64,000 bases of DNA. Origin: Chimonanthus salicifolius. Taxonomy: Eukaryota; Streptophyta; Magnoliopsida; Laurales; Calycanthaceae. Numbering within the stretch: position 1 is the stretch's first letter; the number at the start of each line of letters is the position of its first letter. A program made the translations under genes and the position numbers. The notes beneath the pieces were generated by a model. It was not told where the DNA came from and searched no databases. It worked only from the letters and a program-made list of their open reading frames with translations. The DNA lies in the NCBI GenBank assembly GCA_013350335.1, contig CM023533.1, forward strand, positions 31,726,869-31,790,868, read 5' to 3'. This document shows positions 20,621-64,000 of this stretch, in pieces.

Positions 20621-20958
20621 TCTTCAAGCTCTGCGCTCCTCTTTTCTTCAGCAACGTCGTCGGCCTCTATCTGTGCCGATCTGACTCCGATCTGACAGTC
20701 TTCTTCGGCTTCCTTGGCTGTCCAGCTCTCGCGCATCTTCCCCTTGCTGATGGGTTCCTAGCCGCGGCTCAGAGATCTCTGTTCCGCCGCCTGCTGCCGC
20801 TGCTTTGACCAGTGACGATTCGACCGGCGTGTCGTTTTTGTTTCCAGCCCCTCACGCATCGTACGCTTGCCGTTGGGCGTTGGGTTTGCTGCGGTTATTG
20901 GGGCTTCACTTATTTTTTTTTTGTTTTCTCTCTGGGCTACTACGGTTCCACCATCGAC

Positions 20959-23900
20959 ATGGCCACTCTGCCCCATCTCTCTTCGCAACTTCAGCACTTT
21001 ATTACAGTGAGGTTAACTCCAGATAATTATTTGATTTGGAAATCTCAACTATTGCCCTTTCTCCGTGGGTACAATGTCATTGGGTATGTTGATGGCACTC
21101 TATCTGCCCCACCACAGGTTTTGCCTGTCGATCCTAAAGATAAAACTTCCTCCTCTACACAGATCAACCCTGAGTTTCTCACTTGGCAACAAAATGATCA
21201 GCTTCTACTTGGGTGTCTGCTCTCTACTCTCACAGAACCAATTCAAGCTCAATTGGTTGGTGTTCCCACGGCTCGCGCGGCTTGGCTTCAGTTGGAGCGG
21301 TCTTTTTCGTCTCACTCTCCGGCGCGTGTTATGCAACTCCGCCTCCAACTTTTACACATTCAAAAGGGCACTTCTTCTATATTGCAATATCTTACTTCTA
21401 TCAAGTCACTTGCTGATAGTCTTGCGGCGGCCGCTCGCCCTGTCACGGATGATGATCTTGTCCTCGCTACTCTGGGTGGTCTTGGTCCGGCCTATTCTAC
21501 TTTTGTCACTGCCATAAGTACTCGAGCTGAGCCTGTATCCTTCTTTGACCTACAGGGCCTTCTTTACAGTCACGAACTTCGCCTTGCACATGAGGTTGTT
21601 CCGCTTGACGTGCCCGCTCCACAAGCAAACACTTCTACTAGGCAGCAGACACATTATTTCCGCCCATCTCCGCGCGGTTCTTCCTCTCATCCCGCTCGCT
21701 CTCGGGGGCGTGGTGGTGGTCGTTCTCGGGGACGTCCTGTGCAGTCTTCGTCTCCTACTGATCGTGCTTCGGATACTCAACCTAGACGCTCGTCTCGTCT
21801 CATCTGTCAGGTTTGCAACCGCATTGGTCACACAGCCCTGCAGTGTCGCCAGCGTTTCAACAATGCCTTCCAACCTCTGGAATCCACAGCCGCCTACACT
21901 GCTTCTGTCTCGCCTCCCTTTGATAATAGTTGGTTTCCTGACTCCGGTGCTTCTCATCATGTTACGGCGGATCTCAGCAACCTTTCTTTACATTCAGATT
22001 ATTCTGGTCCAGATCACCTAACAGTGGGTAACGGTGCAGGTTTGCCTATTCACCATATTGGTTCTTCTACTATGATTTCCAACAATGACAGATCTTTTCG
22101 TCTTGGTGATATTTTACATGTTCCGTCTATTTCTCGCAACTTATTATCCGTCAATCAGTTTACACGTGATAATAATGTGTTCTTTGAATTTCACCCTGAC
22201 TATTTCTATATTAAGGATCGCACAACGGGGACAATTCTAACTCAAGGATCGAGTAAGAAGGGACTCTATCAGCTCATGCTACATTGCTCACCACACTCAG
22301 CTTCGTCTCCTACCGCGTTTCTTGGCGTACGTGCATCTCTCGAACGGTGGCATTCTCGCATGGGTCATCCTGCTACCCGTATTGTTAGACAGATTATTTC
22401 CACAGCAAAGTTACCTGTTACTCTTCATAATAAAGGTCCGGAGGTGTGCTCTGCGTGCCAGTTTGGGAAAAGTCACAAGCTGCCTTTTTCCAGCTCTCCT
22501 TCTACATCGTCTGCACCATTAGATCTTCTCTTTTCTGATGTATGGGGCCCGGCTCCTACTAGATCTGTTGATGGACATAAGTTTTATGTGGTTTTTGTTG
22601 ATGATTATTCGAAATTTTGTTGGATATTTCCACTTGTTGCTAAATCTGATGTTTTTGATACATTTGTACGTTTTCACCGATTTGTGGAAAAATATTTTAA
22701 TCGTCCTATCAAGGCGATTCAGACTGATTGGGGTGGTGAATATCAACGGTTAAGCCCTTATCTGTTGCAGAGTGGGATTCTTCACAGAGTATCATGTCCT
22801 CATACACATGAGCAAAATGGTTCTGTTGAGCGCAAGCATCGTCATATTGTGGAGACCGGTCTTACCCTAATGGCTCATGCCCATGTCCCTCAGGCCTTCT
22901 GGAACCACGCTTTTGAGACGGCTGTTTATCTAATCAATCGTCTCCCTACTCCTGTCTTGCAGTCTCGTTCTCCACTAGAGGTTTTATTTGGTCAACGCCC
23001 TGACTATTCATTATTTCGGGTTTTCGGCTGTACTTGTTACCCGTATATGCGACCTTATAATCGTCACAAAATGGACCATCGCTCTGTCCTGTGCATCTTT
23101 TTGGGATACAGTACTCGTCATCGTGGTTACAAGTGTTATCATCCCGCCACTCAGAAAGTTATTATAGCACGCCATGTGGTTTTTGACGAAAGTATCTTCC
23201 CTTTTGCAGGTTCTCCTCCTTCGTCTGAGGCGACACATTCATCTGTGTCCCTTCCTGTACCAGTTATTTTTGCTCCTTTACAGCCGCCCAGTTCTTCTGC
23301 TGTACCACATGATGCTATGGTTGAGCCCTCACATGCTCCTCCAGTTGTGCCCACGACGGTCTCCTCAGTGACGTCTCCTCCTGCGGTATCACCTGCTTCT
23401 GCACCATTATTAGCTCCTACTCCTACTTCGCCTGCCTCGGACTCTCCGGCATCTATCGGATCTGCGCCTCATCCTGCTGCCTCCGATTTTGGTGTTTCTT
23501 CTGACTCTTTGGTTGCTCCGTCTTCCACTTCTCTTCATCCTATGCAGACACGTGCTAAGTCTGGTATTATTAAGCGCAAAGCCTTGACTGCTACTAAATA
23601 TGCTTTGCCCTCATCCGACACCTCCGAGATGGTTCCCTCCTGTGTCTCTTCTGCTGTGAAATTTCCTGCTTGGCGTGCTGCTATGAGTACAGAACTTAAT
23701 GCTCTCATTCATCAGGGTACTTGGCTTCTTGTTCCACGTCAACCCTCTATGAACGTTCTTGGCTGTAAGTGGGTTTTCACCCTTAAACGACATGCCGACG
23801 GGTCGATTGCTCGACACAAGGCGCGCCTTGTTGCTAAAGGCTACAATCAACTTCCTGGCGTTGATTATCATGACACCTTTAGTCCTGTGGTTAAGTTTAC

Positions 23901-25191
23901 CACTATCCGGTTGGTTCTTGCTCTTGCAGTTTCACATGGTTGGTCTCTTCATCAGCTTGATGTCAATAATGCCTTTCTTCATGGTCATCTTGACGAAGAT
24001 GTTTATATGAGTCAACCTCCTGGTTTTGTGGATTCTACTCATCCTACGCATGTGTGCCAACTCTTGAAGTCCATCTATGGTCTCAAACAGTCTCCGCGAG
24101 CATGGTTTCGACGACTCAGTGATTTTTTACTCAGTTTGGACTTTACTAGTTCCAAAACTGACGCTTCGTTATTCATCTACCGTCATAATGATATTCTCTT
24201 ATTTCTCCTGGTGTATGTGGATGACATTCTGATTACAAGTAACTCTTCTTCCAAGATTGCTGATATTATCTCCCTCTTGGGCCGTGAATTTTCACTCAAA
24301 GACCTTGGTCGTCTTCATCATTTTCTGGGTATTGAGGTATGTCACACACAGACTGGCGTTCTCCTCTCCCAACGGCACTATGTTCGTGATCTACTCACCC
24401 GTTCTAGTATGCATGATTCAAAACCTGTGAAGTCTCCTGTTGCCTCGTCCATTTCTTTATCACGACATTCTGGCGATCCATTACCAGATGCTACCCTCTA
24501 TCGGAGTATTGTCGGAGGCTTACAGTATTTGACTCTCACGCGTCCTGATATTGCTTTTGCTGTGAACAAGGCCTGTCAGTTTATGCATCAACCCTCTACC
24601 GAGCATTGGGCTTTTGTCAAACGCATCCTTCGGTACCTTAAACAGACTATTTCCTATGGGTTACAGTTTCATCGCTCTTCTCCATTATGTTTGTCTGCCT
24701 TCTCTGATGCTGATTGGGCGGGTTGCCCTGATGATCGGCGATCAACTGGTGGTTTTGCTATCTTTCTCGGCAACAATCTGATCTCTTGGAATTCTAAGAA
24801 ACAACAAACTGTTGCTCGTTCTAGTACTGAAGCTGAATATCGGGCTGTAGCCTCTGCCTCCGCTGAGCTCACATGGTTACTTTCTCTTCTTGGGGAGTTA
24901 CATGTGTGCCTCCCTGGTCCTCCTACTCTTTGGTGTGATAATATTGGTGCTACTTATCTCACTGCCAACCCAGTTTTTCACGCTCGTACAAAGCATGTTG
25001 AGATTGACTTTCACTTTGTTCGAGATATGGTTGCTAGTAAACAACTTGTGGTGAAAATTATCTCAACCAAGGACCAGTTGGCTGATATCTTCACGAAAGG
25101 TCTATCATCCCCTCGTTTTCTGTCCCTTCGTAGCAAGCTCAATCTCGTTGATGGCGAGTTGGGCTTGAGGGGGGCTATTAGAGATAATTAA
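20959..25191 (+). CDS. Ty1/copia gag-pol polyprotein
   Basis: The frame is open from 20812, but the likely start is ATG 20959 ([10 protein letters not shown], good context), which begins a UBN2-type Gag. In order: a CCHC zinc knuckle ([14 protein letters not shown]), an aspartic protease core (DSGASHH), a GAG-pre-integrase HSRMGHP block, an integrase with [14 protein letters not shown] and [10 protein letters not shown] (D-D-E residues present), a reverse transcriptase with KARLVAKGY and YVDDILI, and RNase H with [16 protein letters not shown] and ADIFTKG. The order protease-integrase-RT-RNase H is diagnostic for copia. The stop codon lies a few bases inside the 3' LTR. No frameshift or premature stop was found. 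It is an element of the plant genome, not a free virus. Confidence 0.96.
25167..25174 (+). other. Polypurine tract
   Basis: GAGGGGGG lies one base before the 3' LTR and is the expected primer for plus-strand synthesis. The extra C at 25175 separates it from the LTR start. Confidence 0.85.
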
Positions 25192-29440: not shown

Positions 29441-30239
29441 CATTCAACAAGTTTCAATTGATTGGTAGACCTTTAATCCTCTTATTAAATTATCCATCCC
29501 ATAGTTTTATTTTGATCTTAGAAAATCAGTAGTCAAGATACTCAATAGGTCTTGATAATCTATGTAATTATATAATTCTTTAAACATGCCATGAATGCAT
29601 GACAGGGTGGTATTTATTTGAGCACAGAAGGTTAGAAATGTTAACAAAGAAAATGATGATCTGCAGATTCTTCTAACCTATAAAATTATTTCCTTGTGGA
29701 TATGCACTAAACTTAGGATAAGGGATTGAAATAATTCCTTTAGATATGCACAGACTCAACCTCAAATTCGCCTATTTCAAATATGTGGGGCATGCAATGT
29801 CTCACCCCATTAAAATACCCATTCTTTCTCTTCTCTTCTCTTTACTTTTTCAAGGTGACAAAGATACGTCCATATTCTAAATTTCTATGTTGCTTTCAAT
29901 TCACCCTTGCTTTAGATTATTTATATCTTACTTCTTTCTTTTAACAATTATTTATAAAACATGGTTGCATGCGATACTTAGATCTCATCTAATTATCATA
30001 AAATTATATGAATAGATAGATTATTATCAAAACTGTCCTCCACTGAAGAAGGGATCCAGTAAATTTTGCTAGTTCTCGAGTTAAAAATGAATAATTGGAT
30101 AATCTCATAATTAATTCTATAGTAAATATGTATCAAATGAAAATTATAAAAGATTAGATCTAAGTTTGATAAAAATAATAATTTGAACATATTGGATTTA
30201 AAATTAAGTGAGTCACACAAGAAACTCCTGTATCCTGAT

Positions 30240-30654
30240 CGATGTTTTAAAGCCTGGCTCGTGGAGCGACTTGTCTTAGAAGAACGGTGGGTTAAATAAG
30301 GTTTAACTGGTTGACCGTAGTCAAATCCAGTCAAACCCGTGCTATTAATATAATATTATAAATAATATTAAATTATTAACTAAGATTATATTTCATTAAA
30401 ATATATTATTTCTCTCACAAATATAATTAGAAATACCAAAAATTAATAATTGAAAAACCATATTTCCAAAAGAACCAACATCTTCATCTTCATTTAAAAA
30501 AACCAAGGGTTTTTAGGGATCACATGTCAAGGATTTATTAGATCAATAAATCAATCGAGTTGATCTGTAGGTCGTAAAGAATTTTTAATCCAAAAGGGTT
30601 TTTCAATGACTCGATCTATATTTCACCCGGATCACGATTTAGAGTCTAACATTG
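30240..30654 (+). mobile_element. CAATGTT-ended MITE (family 2), copy A
   Basis: It starts cgatgttttaaagcc and ends agtctaacattg. The flanks are atcctgat and atcctatt (6 of 8). The interior matches copy B, including gttaaataaggtt, a run of attaatataatatta and aaccaagggttttt. Confidence 0.8.
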
Positions 30655-32542: not shown

Positions 32543-32940
32543 ATTCTATATTAGAAATGAAACTATATATACAAAATTATTTATAAATCTCGTATATTAA
32601 ATAAATCTAACTAAAGGCGAAGTCAAAATATCCATTCAATTTATTAAATGTTTAAGAATCATTCGCTACAGCCCACCATGTCTTCCACTTAAAAATGTCT
32701 GAGCAACATGTACAGGACCCTCTCGATTTCTAGTCCACTCTTATAAAACGTGTTGGTTGGATAATTCATCCAACAATTTTTGTTTTGTACTAGGTATTAT
32801 TAATGTTGAGTTTGGTGTCTGCCCTTTTCTAAATGAAAAATGGGTGGTCCACCAATTTAGATTTGTTTACCTCTTAGTAGAATAACAATAGACAATTTAT
32901 GCTTTAATTAATCACTCAATCATATAAATTATACAAGAAT

Positions 32941-33391
32941 CAATGTTTTAAAATTCGGTCAGTAGAGTGACCCATCTCAGAGGAACTGTGAGTTAAATAA
33001 GGTTCAACCAGTTGACCCATAGTCAAATTCGATTAAACCCATGCTATTAATATAATATTATAATTAATATTAAATTATTAACTAAAATTATATTTTATAA
33101 AAATATTTTTTTCTAACAAACTCAATTATAAATACTAAAAATTAATAATTTAAAAATCATATTCTCAAAAGAACCAACACCTCTGTCTTCATTTTCTTCA
33201 TTTAAAGAAAACCAAGGGTTTTAAAGGTCAAGGGTTACGGGTCACGGGTTTACTAGAAAAACCGAGTTGACCCATAGGTCGCAGAGGGTTTTTAATCCAA
33301 AAGAGTCTTAAAATGACCCGACCAGTGTTTCAGTTGGGTGACGGTTGACCCACAAGTCAACCCACGAGTTAGGTCGGGTTTGATAACATTG
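32941..33391 (+). mobile_element. CAATGTT-ended MITE (family 2), copy B
   Basis: A perfect 8-bp target duplication ACAAGAAT lies at 32933-32940 and 33392-33399. The ends caatgttttaaaa and tttgataacattg form an imperfect terminal inverted repeat. It is 451 bp with no coding capacity. The 8-bp duplication suggests hAT. Confidence 0.9.
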
Positions 33392-43048: not shown

Positions 43049-43120
43049 TAGAAATTTGATTGTTGGTTGGAAGTATTCTCCACTTCTGCGATTTGGTTAT
43101 CAGGACACAGAGTAGCAATC

Positions 43121-45778
43121 ATGATATCAAGGTCATGCACGAACCTTTTAGATTTGGTATCTGAAGACCTATTGGATATCCCTAAAACTTCTGGAAGAGT
43201 TCCTAGGATTATCTCGGACCTATATGATTATGGTAGTGATGTTGAGGATTCAAATGATCTTTTGACTGTATGCCGGGAGCGGATAATCATAGTAGCTAAT
43301 CAGCTTCCAGTGCTTGCTCAAAAGGATCCAGTGGATGGGTCTTGGACCTTCAGAATGGATGAGGATTCACTCCTGGTCCAACTGAAGGATGGTTTCTCAC
43401 GTGATACAGAAGTTATTTATGTTGGTTCTCTCAAGGCTGATATAGATGCAAATATGCAGGAAGAAATAGCTCAAAAGCTTCTAGAAGTCTACAACTGTGT
43501 ACCCACATTTCTGGCACCTGATCTACAGAAGCGATTTTACCATGGGTTCTGTAAGCAGCAGCTTTGGCCACTTATCCATTATATGCTTCCCATTTTTCCT
43601 GATAGCTGTGATCGCTTTGACCGGTCCCTATGGCAAGCCTATGTTTCTGCCAATAAAATATTTGCAGATAAGGTGATGGAGGTCATTAATCCTGATAATG
43701 ATTATGTCTGGGTTCATGATTATCACCTTATGGTTCTACCTACTTTCTTAAGAAAGCGATTCCATCGAGTTAAACTTGGTTTCTTCCTTCACAGCCCATT
43801 CCCCTCGTCGGAAATATACCGGACTCTGCCAGTCAGAGATGAAATTCTGAGGGCTCTGCTAAACTCTGATCTAATTGGTTTCCACACATATGATTATGCC
43901 CGCCACTTTCTTTCTTGCTGCAGCAGGATGCTTGGCTTGGATTATGAATCAAAACGGGGTTATATCGGGCTTGATTACTATGGTCGAACAGTAAGCATTA
44001 AGATTCTTCCTGTTGGTGTCCATATGGGTCTTCTTGAATCTACATTGAATCGACCATGTACATCCATCAAAGTTAAAGAGATCCAAGAAAATTTCAGTGG
44101 GAAGAAGTTGATTATAGGTGTAGACGACATGGACATTTTTAAAGGCATTAGCCTGAAGCTACTAGCCATGGAGCAACTCCTGGAACAGCACCCTGAGTTA
44201 CAGGGCAAACTAGTCTTAATTCAAATTGTCAATCCTGCAAGGGGCATGGGGAAAGATGTTAAGGAAGCAAGACAGGAAGTATACTCAACAGCTGAAAGGA
44301 TCAATAGGGTTTATGGGTGTAAAGGCTATGATCCTGTGGTTCTGATTGACCAATCTGTTCCTTTTTATGAGAAAGTTGCATATTATGTGGTGGCAGACTG
44401 TTGTATAGTGAATGCTGTGAGGGATGGGATGAACTTAGTTCCATACAAATACATTGTTTGCAGGCAGGGAACTGAGCTGATGGATGAAGCTAGTGGTGCC
44501 ACTGCAGACTCTTCTCACACAAGCACGCTTATTGTATCTGAATTCGTAGGTTGCTCACCTTCTCTAAGTGGAGCAATCAGGGTTAACCCATGGAATATTG
44601 ATGCTGTGGCTGATGCTCTGAATTTAGCTATTACCATGCCCGATTCTGAGAAGCAACTGCGCCATGAAAAGCATTACCGTTATGTCAGCTCTCATGACGT
44701 GGGTTATTGGGCTTTTAGCTTTTGGCAGGATCTGGAGAGAGCATGCAATGATCATTATAGCAGGCGGTGTTGGGGCATTGGGTTTGGCTTGGGTTTTAGA
44801 GTTGTTGCTCTTTCTCCAAACTTCAGGAAGTTGTCAATTGAGCACATTGTATCAGCATACAAGACAGCCAGTAGAAGGGCAATATTTTTGGACTACGATG
44901 GCACCGTCATGCCCCAGACATCTATTATTAAAAATCCCAGTACTGAAGTTGTTTCTATTCTCAATAGCTTATGCAGTGATTCGAAGAATACTGTGTTTAT
45001 TATAAGCGGCAGAGGGCGACCTTCTCTTAGTGAGTGGTTTGACCCATGTGAGATGTTAGGAATTGCAGCAGAGCATGGATACTTCATAAGGTATTTTTCA
45101 ATTTGAGAGTAAGTTGTTTGTTAAACTTGAACCCGGTCTCTTTTATGTGCCACTATGTCATTGAAAATGTGTATGGGAACAAGATTCTATCCATCCATCA
45201 GGTGGTTTCTTTGTGCCTTGGCCACCTTTAACAATTAGGCTGTCAGCCAGGCTTCTTACCCATCTCTGTGGTAGTGTGGTATACTGGAGCACACCTAATG
45301 CTTGGATTTGCCCAAGTTTTTTGTTTAGTTACATGACAATCCTCTTGATGGACAGTTGGGCATTCAACCTTGCGTGCTTGCCACATCTTTGTATTCTCGT
45401 ATGTGTCTGTCAACAGACAAGTTAGACGACCGTTGGCAGCATAGAAAGAGAAGCTGGCTCTTGAAAATTTTCTTTTCATATCCAAATATGAGTTGGTAGC
45501 TTTACTTAAGAAGTCGTGTTTTACCTATATGTGCTACCAATTGTTTAGTGACTACAGTCATCATTAATACAATGGATCTGTCAGTAGAGCAACTCTGAGT
45601 CTGACCAGACTCCATGGCTTGGGTTTGTTAGTTTGTGTTTTCAAATTATCAAGTTCTCTAACTTCTTAAGAACAGCCATTTACTTCACAAATTTCTCAAG
45701 AAGAGAATAGTTAGTAAATAGTTCGCAGATTCTCTTTGTTGCATTCATCTGTTATCCTTGATAGAGAGTGAGAGCGAG

Positions 45779-60544: not shown

Positions 60545-61135
60545 ATGGCAGAGGAGGACAAGGAGAGAACACTGGTGGAAATCATCGAGGATCCTTCATC
60601 CCCCATCGATCCCATCAAATACACCGACTTCGTAAGCAGTCCCAAATCAGGCGCCATCGCCACTTTCGCCGGCACAACGCGCGACTCCTTCGAAGGGAAG
60701 CGGGTGGTCGAACTACGCTACGAGGCGTACGTGCCGATGGCGATCCGACGGCTTAGATCGATCTGCTCCTCCGCCCGTTCGTCCTGGGACCTGGACGCCA
60801 TCGCCGTCGCCCACCGTCTGGGCATTGTTCCGGTCGGCCAGACCAGCGTATTCGTCGCCGTGTCGGCCGTGCACCGGTCCGACGCGTTGGACGCTTGCAA
60901 GTACCTGATCGACGAGATAAAGGCATCCGTACCGATATGGAAGAAGGAGGTGTACGAAAACGGAGAGGTGTGGAAGGAGAACTCGGAGTTCATGGAGAGT
61001 AGGTTAGCGCTTGGGATTGGAAAGGGTGCGCACGATAAGGGCAGCTGCTGCCGGGGAAAGGTTAAGGTGGGGTGCGTGGACGATGCGGCGCACGTTAGAC
61101 ACGAGCAGGGAGGAGTAGAAGGGAAACTTTCCTAG
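60545..61135 (+). CDS. MOCS2B: Molybdopterin synthase catalytic (large) subunit
   Basis: This MoaE-family protein (CNX6 in Arabidopsis) works with the small MoaD-like subunit to insert dithiolene sulfurs into cyclic pyranopterin monophosphate, giving molybdopterin in the cytosol. The single-exon frame encodes 196 residues. Family landmarks in order are GAIATFAGTTRDSFEGK (36-52), LRYEAYVPMA, the HRLGIVPVGQ block (90-99), VSAVHRSDALDACKYLIDEI and the active-site lysine region VPIWKKEVYENGEVWKEN (129-146). The start is the first ATG of the frame, followed directly by family-like sequence. The C-terminal 45 residues beyond the core are not conserved in MoaE. The GC content is much higher than the flanks, as is common for intronless plant genes. 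The last two codons and the stop lie at the left edge of a duplicated segment. Confidence 0.95.
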   Translation: MAEEDKERTLVEIIEDPSSPIDPIKYTDFVSSPKSGAIATFAGTTRDSFEGKRVVELRYEAYVPMAIRRLRSICSSARSSWDLDAIAVAHRLGIVPVGQTSVFVAVSAVHRSDALDACKYLIDEIKASVPIWKKEVYENGEVWKENSEFMESRLALGIGKGAHDKGSCCRGKVKVGCVDDAAHVRHEQGGVEGKLS

Positions 61136-61336
61136 TCGGGTGAGATTCAGCGGAGGGGTATTTTGCAAATATTCTCTCAATGTTTGTTTTTTCAACTAAT
61201 TATAAAATGTATTTGTAATTTTTGTTTACCAATCAAAATAGCTCTCTTTACGTGCCAATGTTTAAATTGTGACTAAATAATATTCATGTAGGTAGCTAGT
61301 GGGAAGTGGAAGCTAATGATAATATCAAATGTATTT
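61127..61336. repeat. Duplicated segment, left copy (MOCS2B 3' flank)
   Basis: Starting at ctttccta, the last two MOCS2B codons and stop, this stretch is about 95% identical to 63784-64000. My hand alignment gives about 10 substitutions, mostly transitions, plus a 3-bp and a 9-bp length difference. The second copy runs off the window, so the full length is unknown. Offset 2657 bp. Confidence 0.95.
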
Positions 61337-61536
61337 GTTAGAGTTCGGTTAGTGAGACTTCCTAATTAAGACTCTTTGATGAGATATCTTATAAAAATAT
61401 GTGATGCAGGTCAAGAACTCGGGATTTTAAGACGAATCACATAATTGGGCCTGCGTTGGATTCATTGGGTTTGACGTCTACGTTAAAATGGATATGAAAT
61501 ATAACACTAATGTTACTATTAATTGATAATTCAAAC

Positions 61537-61981
61537 CAATGTTATCAAATTTGAATCTATCCGTGGGTTGATGCGCGGGTCAACTGTGATCCAGCTAAAA
61601 TACGGGTTGAGTCATTTTAACACCTTTCTAGATTAAAAATCCTTTTAGACCTGCAGGTCAATCTGGTTTTTTTAATAAAATTGTGCTCCTTGACCCTTAA
61701 AAACCCTTAGTTTCTTTAAATGAAGAAAATAAAAATAAAGATTTTGGTTCTTTTGAAAATATAATTTTTAGATTATTAATTTTTAGTATTTACAATTGGG
61801 TTTGTGAGTAAGAAAAATATTTTTATGAAATATAACTTTAGTTAATAATTTAATATTATTTATAATATTATATTAATAGCACGAGTTTGATCAGGTTTGA
61901 CTATAGGTCAATCCAGTTGAATTTTATTTAACCCTCTTCTTCTAAAATGGGTCATTGCACGGGTTGAGTTTTAAAACATTG
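61537..61981 (-). mobile_element. CAATGTT-ended MITE (family 2), copy C
   Basis: A perfect 8-bp target duplication ATTCAAAC lies at 61529-61536 and 61982-61989. It starts caatgttatcaaattt and ends gttttaaaacattg, i.e. inverted relative to copy B and about 445 bp. It lies within the segment proposed to be tandemly duplicated. Confidence 0.9.
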
Positions 61982-61999
61982 ATTCAAACTATATAATTC

Positions 62000-62003
<4 letters not shown>

Positions 62004-62066
<63 letters not shown>
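62004..62066. repeat. (AT)n microsatellite
   Basis: About 63 bases of perfect AT repeat, just right of the family-2 MITE. Confidence 0.97.
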
Positions 62067-62069
<3 letters not shown>

Positions 62070-63027
62070 TTTTTTTTTGGGTGAGAAAATGCTTTATTTT
62101 GGTACATCAATAAATTCAAACACCTATCCGCTCAAAGGCATAAAATTGAAGAAGAGAAGGTTGTCACTCTCATTACAATTTCCGATCTCTACCTTTCACA
62201 GAAAAATAACATTATATATGCTCTTATTAGAATTAATATAAGGTACAATGTGAAAATTAGAAAATTACTCTGCTTTTGACCAAATCGACAGTACATATCT
62301 CTCATCATCAAGTTTCAAAGAACCTAACACTTTTAACACAGCTCTTATATATATATTTTTTAATAGAACACATTCAGGCCAGGCCCTTGCCATTGTTTAG
62401 AATCTTAAAACATGGACTCAACCCAAGAATATAATGCAAGAGTTCTATCATATTGATTTCACAAAACCCTGAAGTTGTATTAAATTTATTAATCTTTTAA
62501 CTATTCAAAATTCAATTGAGTCGAATCAAATCAGACAAAAATAATACATTCGATGATGGTGATGTAGGATATGTTTTTGGAGCCTACAGCTGATTTTGTT
62601 TTCAGGCATGCAATTGGGCAGCATTAACACTGATAGAATATTCTAAGGTTGGGTTGTTTTGGGCTTCCATTCATTTGGACTTTGGACCAATTCAAATAGA
62701 GAAAGTTTTAGATCCAAAAGCATAAGATTTGAATACACAAAGCATCTGAATTCGTCTGTTCTGTACTTGTACCCGCCGGCATTCAAACTTTACGAGTTTT
62801 TTATTATGTTATGCCTGCAAATCTGTCATCTACTAGCAACCTCACACGGCAACCGAGTGACGAGATTACAAAGTCCATTGAGAAATCAGCCAACTTTTGA
62901 TTTCTTCACGTTGTAGCTTTCTTTTTGTTCTAAAATGATTCACTTAGATATATTCCCTACTACTTTAATATGAAAATCCATCACACCCCTTTTCTGCTTC
63001 TTCCAACACTCTGATCCTCCTGCAACT

Positions 63028-63783
63028 ATGGGAAGAATCCTCACATGGGTGGTCTTTGTTTCACTCCTTTCCTACTCTGCAAACTCCTCCATTCCAGAAG
63101 AGGAGAAGCAGTTACTTCTTGACTTCTTTCAAAAACTCACCGGCAGTGCTCGCCCGACTGATCCCAATTTTGGTTGGAATGCCACCTCTGACCCATGCAC
63201 CGACAACTGGAAAGGCACAAGCTGTGACTCTCAATTCTCTGTCAAGAAAATATTTCTTGAAAACCAGGCTTTCAATGGTGTTCTTTTCTTAAAATCAGTC
63301 TGCTCGTTGCAATCGCTCACTCTCTTGAGCATTCAGAACAACAGCATCAGTGGAGAGATATCAGAAGACATTGGTAACTGTAGGCAACTGACCCACCTGC
63401 TTGTCAATGACAACAAATTTTCAGGAAATGTCCAGGCGTCTCTCTCGCACTTGAATAACCTGAAGAGGCTTTCTATCTCAAACAATGACTTTTCTGGTCA
63501 GTTACCTGATTTGTCCAAGATTTCGGGGCTAATATCGTTTCTTGGTCAGAAGAATCAACTCAGTGGGAGCATACCGGAGTTAGATTTCACCAACCTTCAG
63601 CAATTCAATGTCTCTTTTAACAAACTCACTGGTCCTGTTCCTAAACCAGCCAGTCGTTTTGATCTAAGCAGCTTCGATGGGAATCCTGGGTTGTGTGGAA
63701 AACCACTGCCAAATCCATGTACACCTCCAAAGAAGCGGTCAAAAATCTCGAAAGGAGAACGAGTTCTCATGTTCTTAAATTAG
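63028..63783 (+). CDS. Truncated LRR receptor-kinase ectodomain (subfamily III-like)
   Basis: 251 residues: a signal peptide (about 1-20, MGRILTWVVFVSLLSYSANS), an LRR N-terminal cap (FGWNATSDPCTDNWKGTSCD), then LRRs including LSIQNNSISGEI, LLVNDNKFSGNV, LSISNNDFSGQLPDL and FNVSFNKLTGPVP, and the capping SFDGNPGLCGKPLPNPC. Relatives are LRR-III receptor-like kinases with a transmembrane segment and kinase domain right after this point. Here the frame ends at KGERVLMFLN* exactly where a duplicated copy of the MOCS2B 3' flank begins (63784). The product would be secreted and soluble, without membrane anchor or kinase. It may be a dead partial copy or a decoy-like protein; expression is unknown. 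The probable intact gene should lie right of the window. Confidence 0.88.
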   Translation: MGRILTWVVFVSLLSYSANSSIPEEEKQLLLDFFQKLTGSARPTDPNFGWNATSDPCTDNWKGTSCDSQFSVKKIFLENQAFNGVLFLKSVCSLQSLTLLSIQNNSISGEISEDIGNCRQLTHLLVNDNKFSGNVQASLSHLNNLKRLSISNNDFSGQLPDLSKISGLISFLGQKNQLSGSIPELDFTNLQQFNVSFNKLTGPVPKPASRFDLSSFDGNPGLCGKPLPNPCTPPKKRSKISKGERVLMFLN

Positions 63784-64000
63784 CTTTCCTAATCGGGTGA
63801 GATTCAGTTGAGGGGTATTTTGCCAATATTCTCTCGATGTTTGTTTTTTCAACTAATTATAAAATGTATTTGTAATTTTTGTTTATCAATCAAAATAGCT
63901 TTCTTTATATGCCAATGTTTAAATTGTGACTTAATATTCATGTTGGTAGCTAGTGGGAAGTGGAAGAAGCTCTGGCTAATGATAATATCAAATGTATTTG
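63784..64000. repeat. Duplicated segment, right copy (fused to the LRR gene)
   Basis: From ctttcctaatcgggtgag onward it follows 61127-61336 to the window edge. Its left boundary coincides with the premature end of the LRR reading frame. Confidence 0.95.

What the first reader, a model, noticed from the sequence alone, without database searches (positions are those of the whole stretch)
61127..64000. Segmental tandem duplication junction truncates an LRR receptor kinase before its membrane segment
The DNA right of the LRR stop codon is a ~95% copy of the MOCS2B 3' flank (63784 onward equals 61127 onward, offset 2657). The simplest model is a tandem duplication whose left breakpoint was at the end of MOCS2B and whose right breakpoint was inside an LRR kinase gene. 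The left unit then carries a headless-kinase fragment and the next unit should carry the full receptor. The result is a secreted LRR ectodomain with no anchor, possibly a decoy.
Basis: partly seen in the sequence, partly recalled or inferred. Interest (0 to 1): 0.82.

Follow-up and report, generated by a model that had tools for sequence, protein, structure and literature searches.

The report
Tandem array truncating a plant receptor
In a plant chromosome a short segment holding the outer half of a cell-surface receptor gene was copied head to tail, so that one copy now stops just before the membrane anchor; this is a real but ordinary kind of gene duplication, and nothing yet shows that the free outer half does a job.

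Summary
Observation confirmed: 61127-61337 and 63784-64000 agree in 198 of 220 alignment columns. The match starts at the last 9 bases of MOCS2B and right after an LRR stop codon; 14 of 14 aligned relatives continue there towards a membrane segment. I read beyond the window in the host assembly. The tandem-duplication model holds, but there are three units. Unit 1 (window) encodes a clean 251-aa ectodomain. Unit 2 (63784-71690, numbering continued) ends in the identical junction; its LRR copy is wrecked by a Copia-related insert, a 1-nt insertion and a 10-nt deletion. Unit 3 (71691-75545) has membrane segment and kinase exons, but in this assembly frame changes just before and just after the membrane segment. 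So no unit reads as a full receptor; the one other place found, a 70% paralog, has open exons. A functional decoy is not shown: no transcript seen, dN/dS about 0.8, two conserved residues lost; an intact frame is expected by chance in 25-51% of cases at the divergence next to the gene, 1% at the flank's. New example of a known kind (cf. Xa21D, SLG/SRK).

The parts
60545..61135 (+). MOCS2B (MoaE, molybdopterin synthase catalytic subunit), single ORF, 196 aa; its last 9 bases (stop codon included) begin the duplicated segment
   Evidence: ORF; PF02391 E 1.6e-38; a 98% identical protein P0234 has the same C-terminus VEGKLS
61127..63783 (+). Unit 1 of the tandem array: MOCS2B 3' flank, LRR upstream region, LRR ectodomain ORF
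   Evidence: Compared with units 2 and 3 beyond the window
61127..61326 (+). MOCS2B 3' end/3' flank block, about 2% different between units 1 and 3; the copy at 63784 would supply the 3' end of an LRR1 transcript (inference)
61537..61981 (.). hAT-like MITE with 8-bp target duplication ATTCAAAC (61529-61536 and 61982-61989); absent from units 2 and 3, so most simply it came into unit 1 after the duplication
   Evidence: related copies at 32937-33391 and 30238-30635; the hAT label is by its ends and 8-bp duplication (recalled features)
62374..63027 (+). Region just upstream of LRR1, 2% different from unit 3 (14 of 651 sites)
63028..63783 (+). LRR1: ectodomain-only ORF, 251 aa, N-terminal hydrophobic stretch, cysteine caps, no membrane segment
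   Evidence: model pLDDT 88.8, pTM 0.81; nearest solved folds SERK1/2, BIR3 complexes and PRK3 ectodomains
63778..63783 (+). Junction: LRR homology to unit 3 ends at 63777; six bases AATTAG of uncertain origin give the stop codon; MOCS2B-flank homology starts at 63784; the same bases stand at the second junction 71690|71691
63784..64000 (+). Start of unit 2 (continues to 71690 in window numbering, G000:C2:31790652-31798558)

Best explanation
A head-to-tail segmental duplication joined exon 1 of an At2g26730-like LRR receptor kinase gene, at the start of its predicted membrane segment, to the last 9 bases of the upstream neighbour MOCS2B. The same junction was then copied once more (most simply by unequal crossing-over), giving three units. 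Shown: the junction, its exact repeat, the order of the units, and the lesions in units 2 and 3 as assembled. Inferred: if transcribed from its duplicated upstream region, unit 1 would end translation at the junction's TAG, use the MOCS2B-type 3' end that follows, and yield a secreted, unanchored LRR ectodomain. I take this product to be most likely a neutral by-product of a decaying array, not a selected decoy.
For: Junctions 63783|63784 and 71690|71691 are identical over TTCTTAAATTAG|CTTTCCTAATCGGG, so one break event was later copied. In unit 3 the LRR gene reads on past the break into a membrane segment, kinase exon 1 (homology to 74444) and kinase exon 2 (homology from 74961). In one search, 14 of 14 relatives continue at this point towards a membrane segment; several relatives that look like unspliced reading frames end together later, near LLHG/LLNG, so no intron is expected at the break. 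Whole-assembly search with 63028-64000: 5 candidates, 5 places, namely unit 1, unit 2, unit 3, the unit-1 flank and a 70% paralog on C7 (only best candidates are scored there). Units 2 and 3 share five flank indels of 5-28 bases against unit 1; units 1 and 2 share three LRR coding sites against unit 3, among them the derived Q136: the pattern expected if unit 2 is an unequal-crossover hybrid. No MOCS2B body was found in the fetched DNA to 84000. Decay: unit 2 lost its LRR start and has a 1-nt insertion and a 10-nt deletion; unit 3 has two frame changes. LRR1-LRR3 dN 0.0195, dS 0.0245.
Against: The LRR1 and LRR3 ectodomain frames are both open, and without codons 62-88 dN/dS is 0.29 (0.0059/0.0204), which would fit some constraint; at the divergence of the flank an intact LRR1 frame would have a chance of only 0.01 (0.002-0.21). 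In the LRR part two sites group units 2 and 3 (63591, 63643) and 14 sites set unit 2 apart from both others, so the crossover rests on few sites. The frame changes in unit 3 rest on one assembly; the second may lie at a run of six A and could be a sequencing error. Age, crossover and neutral status are inferences.
Confidence: 0.8

Rival explanations
1. Selected soluble decoy or co-receptor: LRR1 (and the 268-aa ORF of unit 3, which also leaves the frame before the membrane segment) are secreted ectodomains that titrate the ligand or partners of a membrane receptor, as proposed by the first reader.
For: Signal-like start, cysteine caps and a confident fold. Short ectodomain-only relatives are listed from Ricinus (with a hydrophobic tail), Aristolochia fimbriata and Manihot (P0123-P0125) and one unnamed source (P0122). 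Precedents in print: Xa21D (passages of PMC3036077) and SLG (passages of PMC3616866). RinRK1, of which At2g26730 is named a homolog, binds NFR1/NFR5 through its extracellular domain (passages of PMC11053012). dN/dS 0.29 outside codons 62-88; intact-frame chance 0.01 if the flank's divergence applies.
Against: No transcript of this gene seen: nothing above 59% identity among the best 120 of 885 hits or the 115, although MOCS2B of a near relative is in the same database at 98%. LRR1 lost D87 and P136. Intact frame by chance 0.25-0.51 at the divergence next to the gene. The short relatives may be partial gene models.
Confidence: 0.12
2. A larger tandem duplication (MOCS2B plus whole LRR-RLK) followed by a deletion from the LRR exon to the end of the second MOCS2B gives the same junction.
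For: Same end structure; nothing in the units excludes it.
Against: Needs two events; no trace of MOCS2B body in units 2 and 3, though the deletion would have removed it.
Confidence: 0.15
3. The MOCS2B flank is a small dispersed repeat or filler that landed in the LRR gene, with the rest of the gene behind it.
For: The in-window data alone would fit this.
Against: Similarity runs on and is followed by second and third LRR copies; no copy outside the array among the 5 places (a dedicated search with the flank did not complete).
Confidence: 0.01
4. Assembly artefact: false duplication or mis-joined haplotypes.
For: One assembly, no reads available.
Against: The copies differ by private substitutions and indels, a hAT-like MITE in unit 1 only and a Copia-related insert in unit 2 only; differences per window of about 100 bases of the flank 2-17%.
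Confidence: 0.04

Closest known systems
[quoted passage not shown]
   Same: An LRR receptor kinase relative that keeps the extracellular LRR domain and is truncated behind it (passages of PMC3036077; the original paper was not held)
   Different: There the cut is a retrotransposon insertion and partial resistance is reported; here the cut is a duplication junction and no function is known; different LRR subfamily (recalled)
SLG and SRK at the Brassica S locus
   Same: A secreted ectodomain gene closely linked to a receptor kinase gene and inferred to derive from a duplicated copy of it (passages of PMC3616866); conversion between the two is presumed for radish alleles (passages of PMC10934505)
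   Different: S-domain, not LRR; there the kinase partner is functional; here the kinase-bearing unit is frameshifted in the assembly
Probable inactive receptor kinase At2g26730-like family (LRR-RLK; a homolog is RinRK1)
   Same: Ectodomain 58-60% identical to the Cinnamomum member P0002; same caps and repeat layout
   Different: Unit 1 lacks membrane segment and kinase
LRR ectodomain-only proteins in plant receptor surveys
   Same: A class counted in a survey of 350 genomes (passages of PMC10834447)
   Different: Here the mechanism of origin is visible at the base level

Membership tests
Tandem segmental duplication | Copies in direct orientation and adjacent, with a defined junction | tested here: met
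Tandem segmental duplication | Distal copy continues through the proximal breakpoint into the rest of the gene | tested here: met
   Unit 3 reads on into membrane segment and kinase exons, though out of frame
At2g26730-like LRR receptor kinase | LRR ectodomain with N- and C-terminal cysteine caps | tested here: met
   LRR_1 and LRR_4 above cut-off; Cys 57, 66, 223, 231 invariant in the alignments
At2g26730-like LRR receptor kinase | Membrane segment in frame | tested here: not met
   LRR1 ends GERVLMFLN*, P0002 and P0011 read GERVLMFLGYIILG; LRR3 leaves the frame at GERVL
At2g26730-like LRR receptor kinase | Kinase domain in frame | tested here: not met
   None found in units 1 and 2; present but out of frame in unit 3
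Soluble receptor decoy (Xa21D-like or SLG-like) | ORF of signal-like start plus ectodomain without anchor | tested here: met
   the signal peptide was judged by eye and hydropathy, not by a dedicated predictor
Soluble receptor decoy (Xa21D-like or SLG-like) | Expressed and secreted | not testable with these tools
   No host transcripts on hand; nothing above 59% identity listed
Soluble receptor decoy (Xa21D-like or SLG-like) | Maintained by selection | tested here: inconclusive
   dN/dS 0.8 overall, 0.29 without codons 62-88; chance of an intact frame 0.25-0.51 or 0.01 by the divergence assumed
Soluble receptor decoy (Xa21D-like or SLG-like) | Functional full-length partner in the genome | tested here: inconclusive
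   Unit 3 is frameshifted; the C7 paralog (70% DNA) has open exons with LRR, membrane segment by eye and kinase; by eye it starts like P0005-P0007, it was not put in a tree

The most novel reading that the evidence does not exclude
The whole locus has turned into a source of membrane-free ectodomains: one copy by a duplication junction and the kinase-bearing copy by a one-base insertion some eight bases before the same point, with the two ectodomains kept alike (about 2%) by gene conversion while a 75-bp island in the first repeats (codons 62-87, 9 changes, all nonsynonymous) diverges, much as is presumed for SLG and SRK. This would be repeated loss of the anchor under selection for a soluble receptor.
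Probability: 0.08. Interest if true: 0.65.

Novelty: new member of a known kind. Interest (0 to 1): 0.3.

Why it matters
It is a base-level record of how an ectodomain-only receptor fragment can arise from a full receptor gene in one step: the neighbour's stop-codon region and 3' flank are fused directly behind the outer domain. If expressed, it would be a natural test of soluble receptor function in a family with a homolog (RinRK1) that acts through its extracellular domain. It is also a caution: an open ectodomain frame in a young duplicate can easily be expected by chance (0.25-0.51 here at the divergence next to the gene), so such ORFs should not be called decoys without expression data.

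Tried and rejected
Rejected: dispersed repeat; intron at the break; chance match. My first estimate that an intact LRR1 frame is unlikely under neutrality (0.044 at 0.025 changes per site on the branch, range 0.002-0.209) used the flank's divergence; with the divergence next to the gene it is 0.25-0.51, with 0.035 per site still 0.01. Synonymous divergence (0.0245) agrees with the lower figure, so I do not use the open frame as evidence of selection. Gene conversion between units 1 and 3: a change point at 62375 (LR 57.8, 0 of 1000 permutations) favours it, but 61333-62361 is elevated in all three pairs, so rate variation is not excluded; left open. The 75-bp cluster (0 of 10000 random placements; the 78-base test width was chosen after seeing it) as a single mutation event: the C7 paralog polarises some changes to unit 1 and one to unit 3, so probably not one event.

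Led nowhere: one search timed out without output; the alignment of the C7 paralog was on the wrong strand and is void (redone); paper searches gave no direct precedent; the original Xa21D paper is not held; a protein search of the host assembly for further family members did not complete, nor were DNA searches with the flank and with MOCS2B, so genome-wide statements rest alone.
Full report
What was checked. The finding claims that the DNA right of the LRR stop codon at 63783 is a copy of the MOCS2B 3' flank. It is: 61127-61337 and 63784-64000 share 198 of 220 alignment columns, with gaps of 3 and 9 bases; 198 of 208 aligned bases agree. The match begins abruptly in both places at CTTTCCTA: the last nine bases of the MOCS2B ORF on the left, the base after the LRR stop on the right. 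It runs to the window's end. 100 shuffled controls reach at most 36.5 bits, the real match 300.

The two genes. 60545-61135 is MOCS2B (MoaE, PF02391). A protein of a near relative, 98% identical, has the same C-terminus, so MOCS2B itself looks undamaged. 63028-63783 is an LRR ectodomain ORF of 251 aa. Its relatives are 'probable inactive receptor kinase At2g26730'-like proteins; the top hit, from Cinnamomum micranthum, is 58% identical. In the alignment of 14 relatives the window's protein ends GERVLMFL-N-stop; 14 of 14 run on, two of them as GERVLMFLGYIILG (P0002, P0011), into a hydrophobic segment. Several relatives that look like unspliced frames pass this point and end together later, near LLHG or LLNG, so no splice site is expected at the break. 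Against this, four short relatives (P0122-P0125) also end without a kinase, and only one of them (P0123) has a hydrophobic tail that could span a membrane; they may be partial models. In tblastn of six relatives similarity ends at 63777 for three, earlier for two, and runs at low identity to 63831 for one; DNA similarity to unit 3 ends at 63777. A tree puts the protein in a six-row group with the Cinnamomum protein, support 100/96, on a long end branch of 0.38. MOCS2B's named hits include Tasmannia lanceolata (77% over 96%) and Magnolia sinica (74% over 98%), though entries named Striga and Spinacia rank above by E-value. The host is probably a magnoliid; that is an inference, the assembly is unnamed.

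Beyond the window. After fourteen unanswered attempts the host assembly was searched: the window is G000:C2:31726869-31790868, in an assembly of 852,596,351 bases. The query 63028-64000 has 5 places: itself, C2:31798075-31798774 (94%, query 264-973, including the junction), C2:31800030-31800780 (98%, query 1-750, stopping at the break), the unit-1 flank, and C7:59754194-59754766 (70%). Adjoining DNA was fetched and numbered on from the window (position = C2 coordinate minus 31726868).

The array. Unit 1 is 61127-63783. Unit 2 is 63784-71690: flank to 64599, then an insert of about 6.6 kb in which three of four ORFs tested have Copia-type domains (Pol_BBD, gag_pre-integrs, RVT_2), then an LRR remnant from 71207, starting at about codon 88, with a 1-nt insertion and a 10-nt deletion. 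It ends in a junction identical to the first over TTCTTAAATTAG|CTTTCCTAATCGGG. Unit 3 is 71691-75545: flank, complete LRR ectodomain from 73162, membrane segment, kinase exon 1 (homology to 74444) and exon 2 (homology from 74961). In this assembly LRR3 has one extra base just before the membrane segment, so its ORF (73162-73968) is 268 aa ending in an out-of-frame tail. A second frame change lies between about 73992 and 74055; a run of six A at 74016-74021 is a candidate place, not a proven one. Units 1 and 2 do not have the extra base, and relatives fit them, so it arose in unit 3. No fourth unit appears up to 84000 or. The C7 paralog has open exons with LRR and kinase domains.

History. An identical junction in two places means one break was copied. 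In the flank, units 2 and 3 share five indels of 5-28 bases against unit 1. In the LRR part, units 1 and 2 share three coding sites against unit 3 (63434, 63471, 63529), of which Q136 is derived since P is nearly invariant among relatives; two sites (63591, 63643) group units 2 and 3, and 14 sites set unit 2 apart. This fits an unequal crossover that made unit 2 from the left part of the kinase-bearing unit and the right part of the truncated one, but it rests on few sites. A hAT-like MITE (61537-61981, 8-bp target duplication) is in unit 1 only. Divergence of units 1 and 3 is about 2% in 61127-61326, 7-17% in 61327-62358 and about 2% from 62375 on, except that 9 of the 15 LRR differences lie within 75 bases (63213-63287; 0 of 10000 random placements). 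Gene conversion, regional rate differences, or both could explain this.

Function. LRR1 would fold as a complete ectodomain (pLDDT 88.8, pTM 0.81); the first Foldseek rows are SERK and PRK3 ectodomains, PRK3 with TM 0.70/0.84. Between LRR1 and LRR3 there are 15 substitutions in 750 bases: 3 synonymous codons, 9 changed residues; dN 0.0195, dS 0.0245; without codons 62-88, 0.0059 and 0.0204. D87F and P136Q in LRR1 hit residues kept in at least 90% of 41 rows. An open frame of this length survives neutrally with a chance of 0.25-0.51 at the divergence seen next to the gene and 0.01 at 0.035 changes per site. Of 52 positions fully conserved among the relatives 1 is lost in LRR1; the other rows lose 0-5 of 51-57. 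No transcript of this gene turned up: among the best 120 of 885 hits and the 115 nothing exceeds 59% identity, although the same database holds MOCS2B of a near relative. So the decoy is possible, not shown.

Known parallels. Xa21D, cut off behind its extracellular LRR domain by a retrotransposon, gives partial resistance (passages of PMC3036077). SLG is a secreted protein linked to SRK and inferred to come from a duplicated copy (passages of PMC3616866); conversion between SRK and SLG is presumed in radish (passages of PMC10934505). Ectodomain-only proteins are a recognised class (passages of PMC10834447). The window's case is a further example by a different cut. Verdict: observation confirmed, tandem-duplication model confirmed and corrected to three units, decoy unsupported.

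Noticed in passing
61537-61981; 32937-33391; 30238-30635: Family of hAT-like MITEs (CAATGTT...AACATTG ends, the third slightly different); the first copy has target duplication ATTCAAAC and the second appears to have ATTCTTGT.
   Followed up: partly
62375 and 64599 in continued numbering (L006:599): The drop in unit 1-unit 3 divergence falls within two bases of the place where homology to unit 2 ends at the Copia-related insert; coincidence or a shared recombination break.
   Followed up: partly
63213-63287: Nine nonsynonymous and no synonymous differences between LRR1 and LRR3 in 75 bases, with three adjacent-base doublets.
   Followed up: partly
20812-25191: A long uninterrupted Copia-type polyprotein ORF of 1459 codons (Copia by eye).
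   Followed up: no
43067-45106: Large ORF (679 aa) resembling a trehalose-phosphate synthase first exon (by eye).
   Followed up: no
L006:600-7206 (64600-71206 in continued numbering): In a self-comparison the Copia-related insert of unit 2 shows no pair of long terminal repeats, only a 78-base local repeat; its left edge looks like coding sequence, so its left end and the start of LRR2 were probably lost together.
   Followed up: partly
L007:6969-7222 and L007:9487-9739: A direct repeat pair of about 254 bases, 97% alike, around minus-strand ORFs that look Copia-type by eye, downstream of unit 3.
   Followed up: no
P0122, P0123, P0124, P0125: Ectodomain-only members of the same receptor family, three of them named from Ricinus, Aristolochia fimbriata and Manihot; they may be real or partial gene models.
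   Followed up: partly
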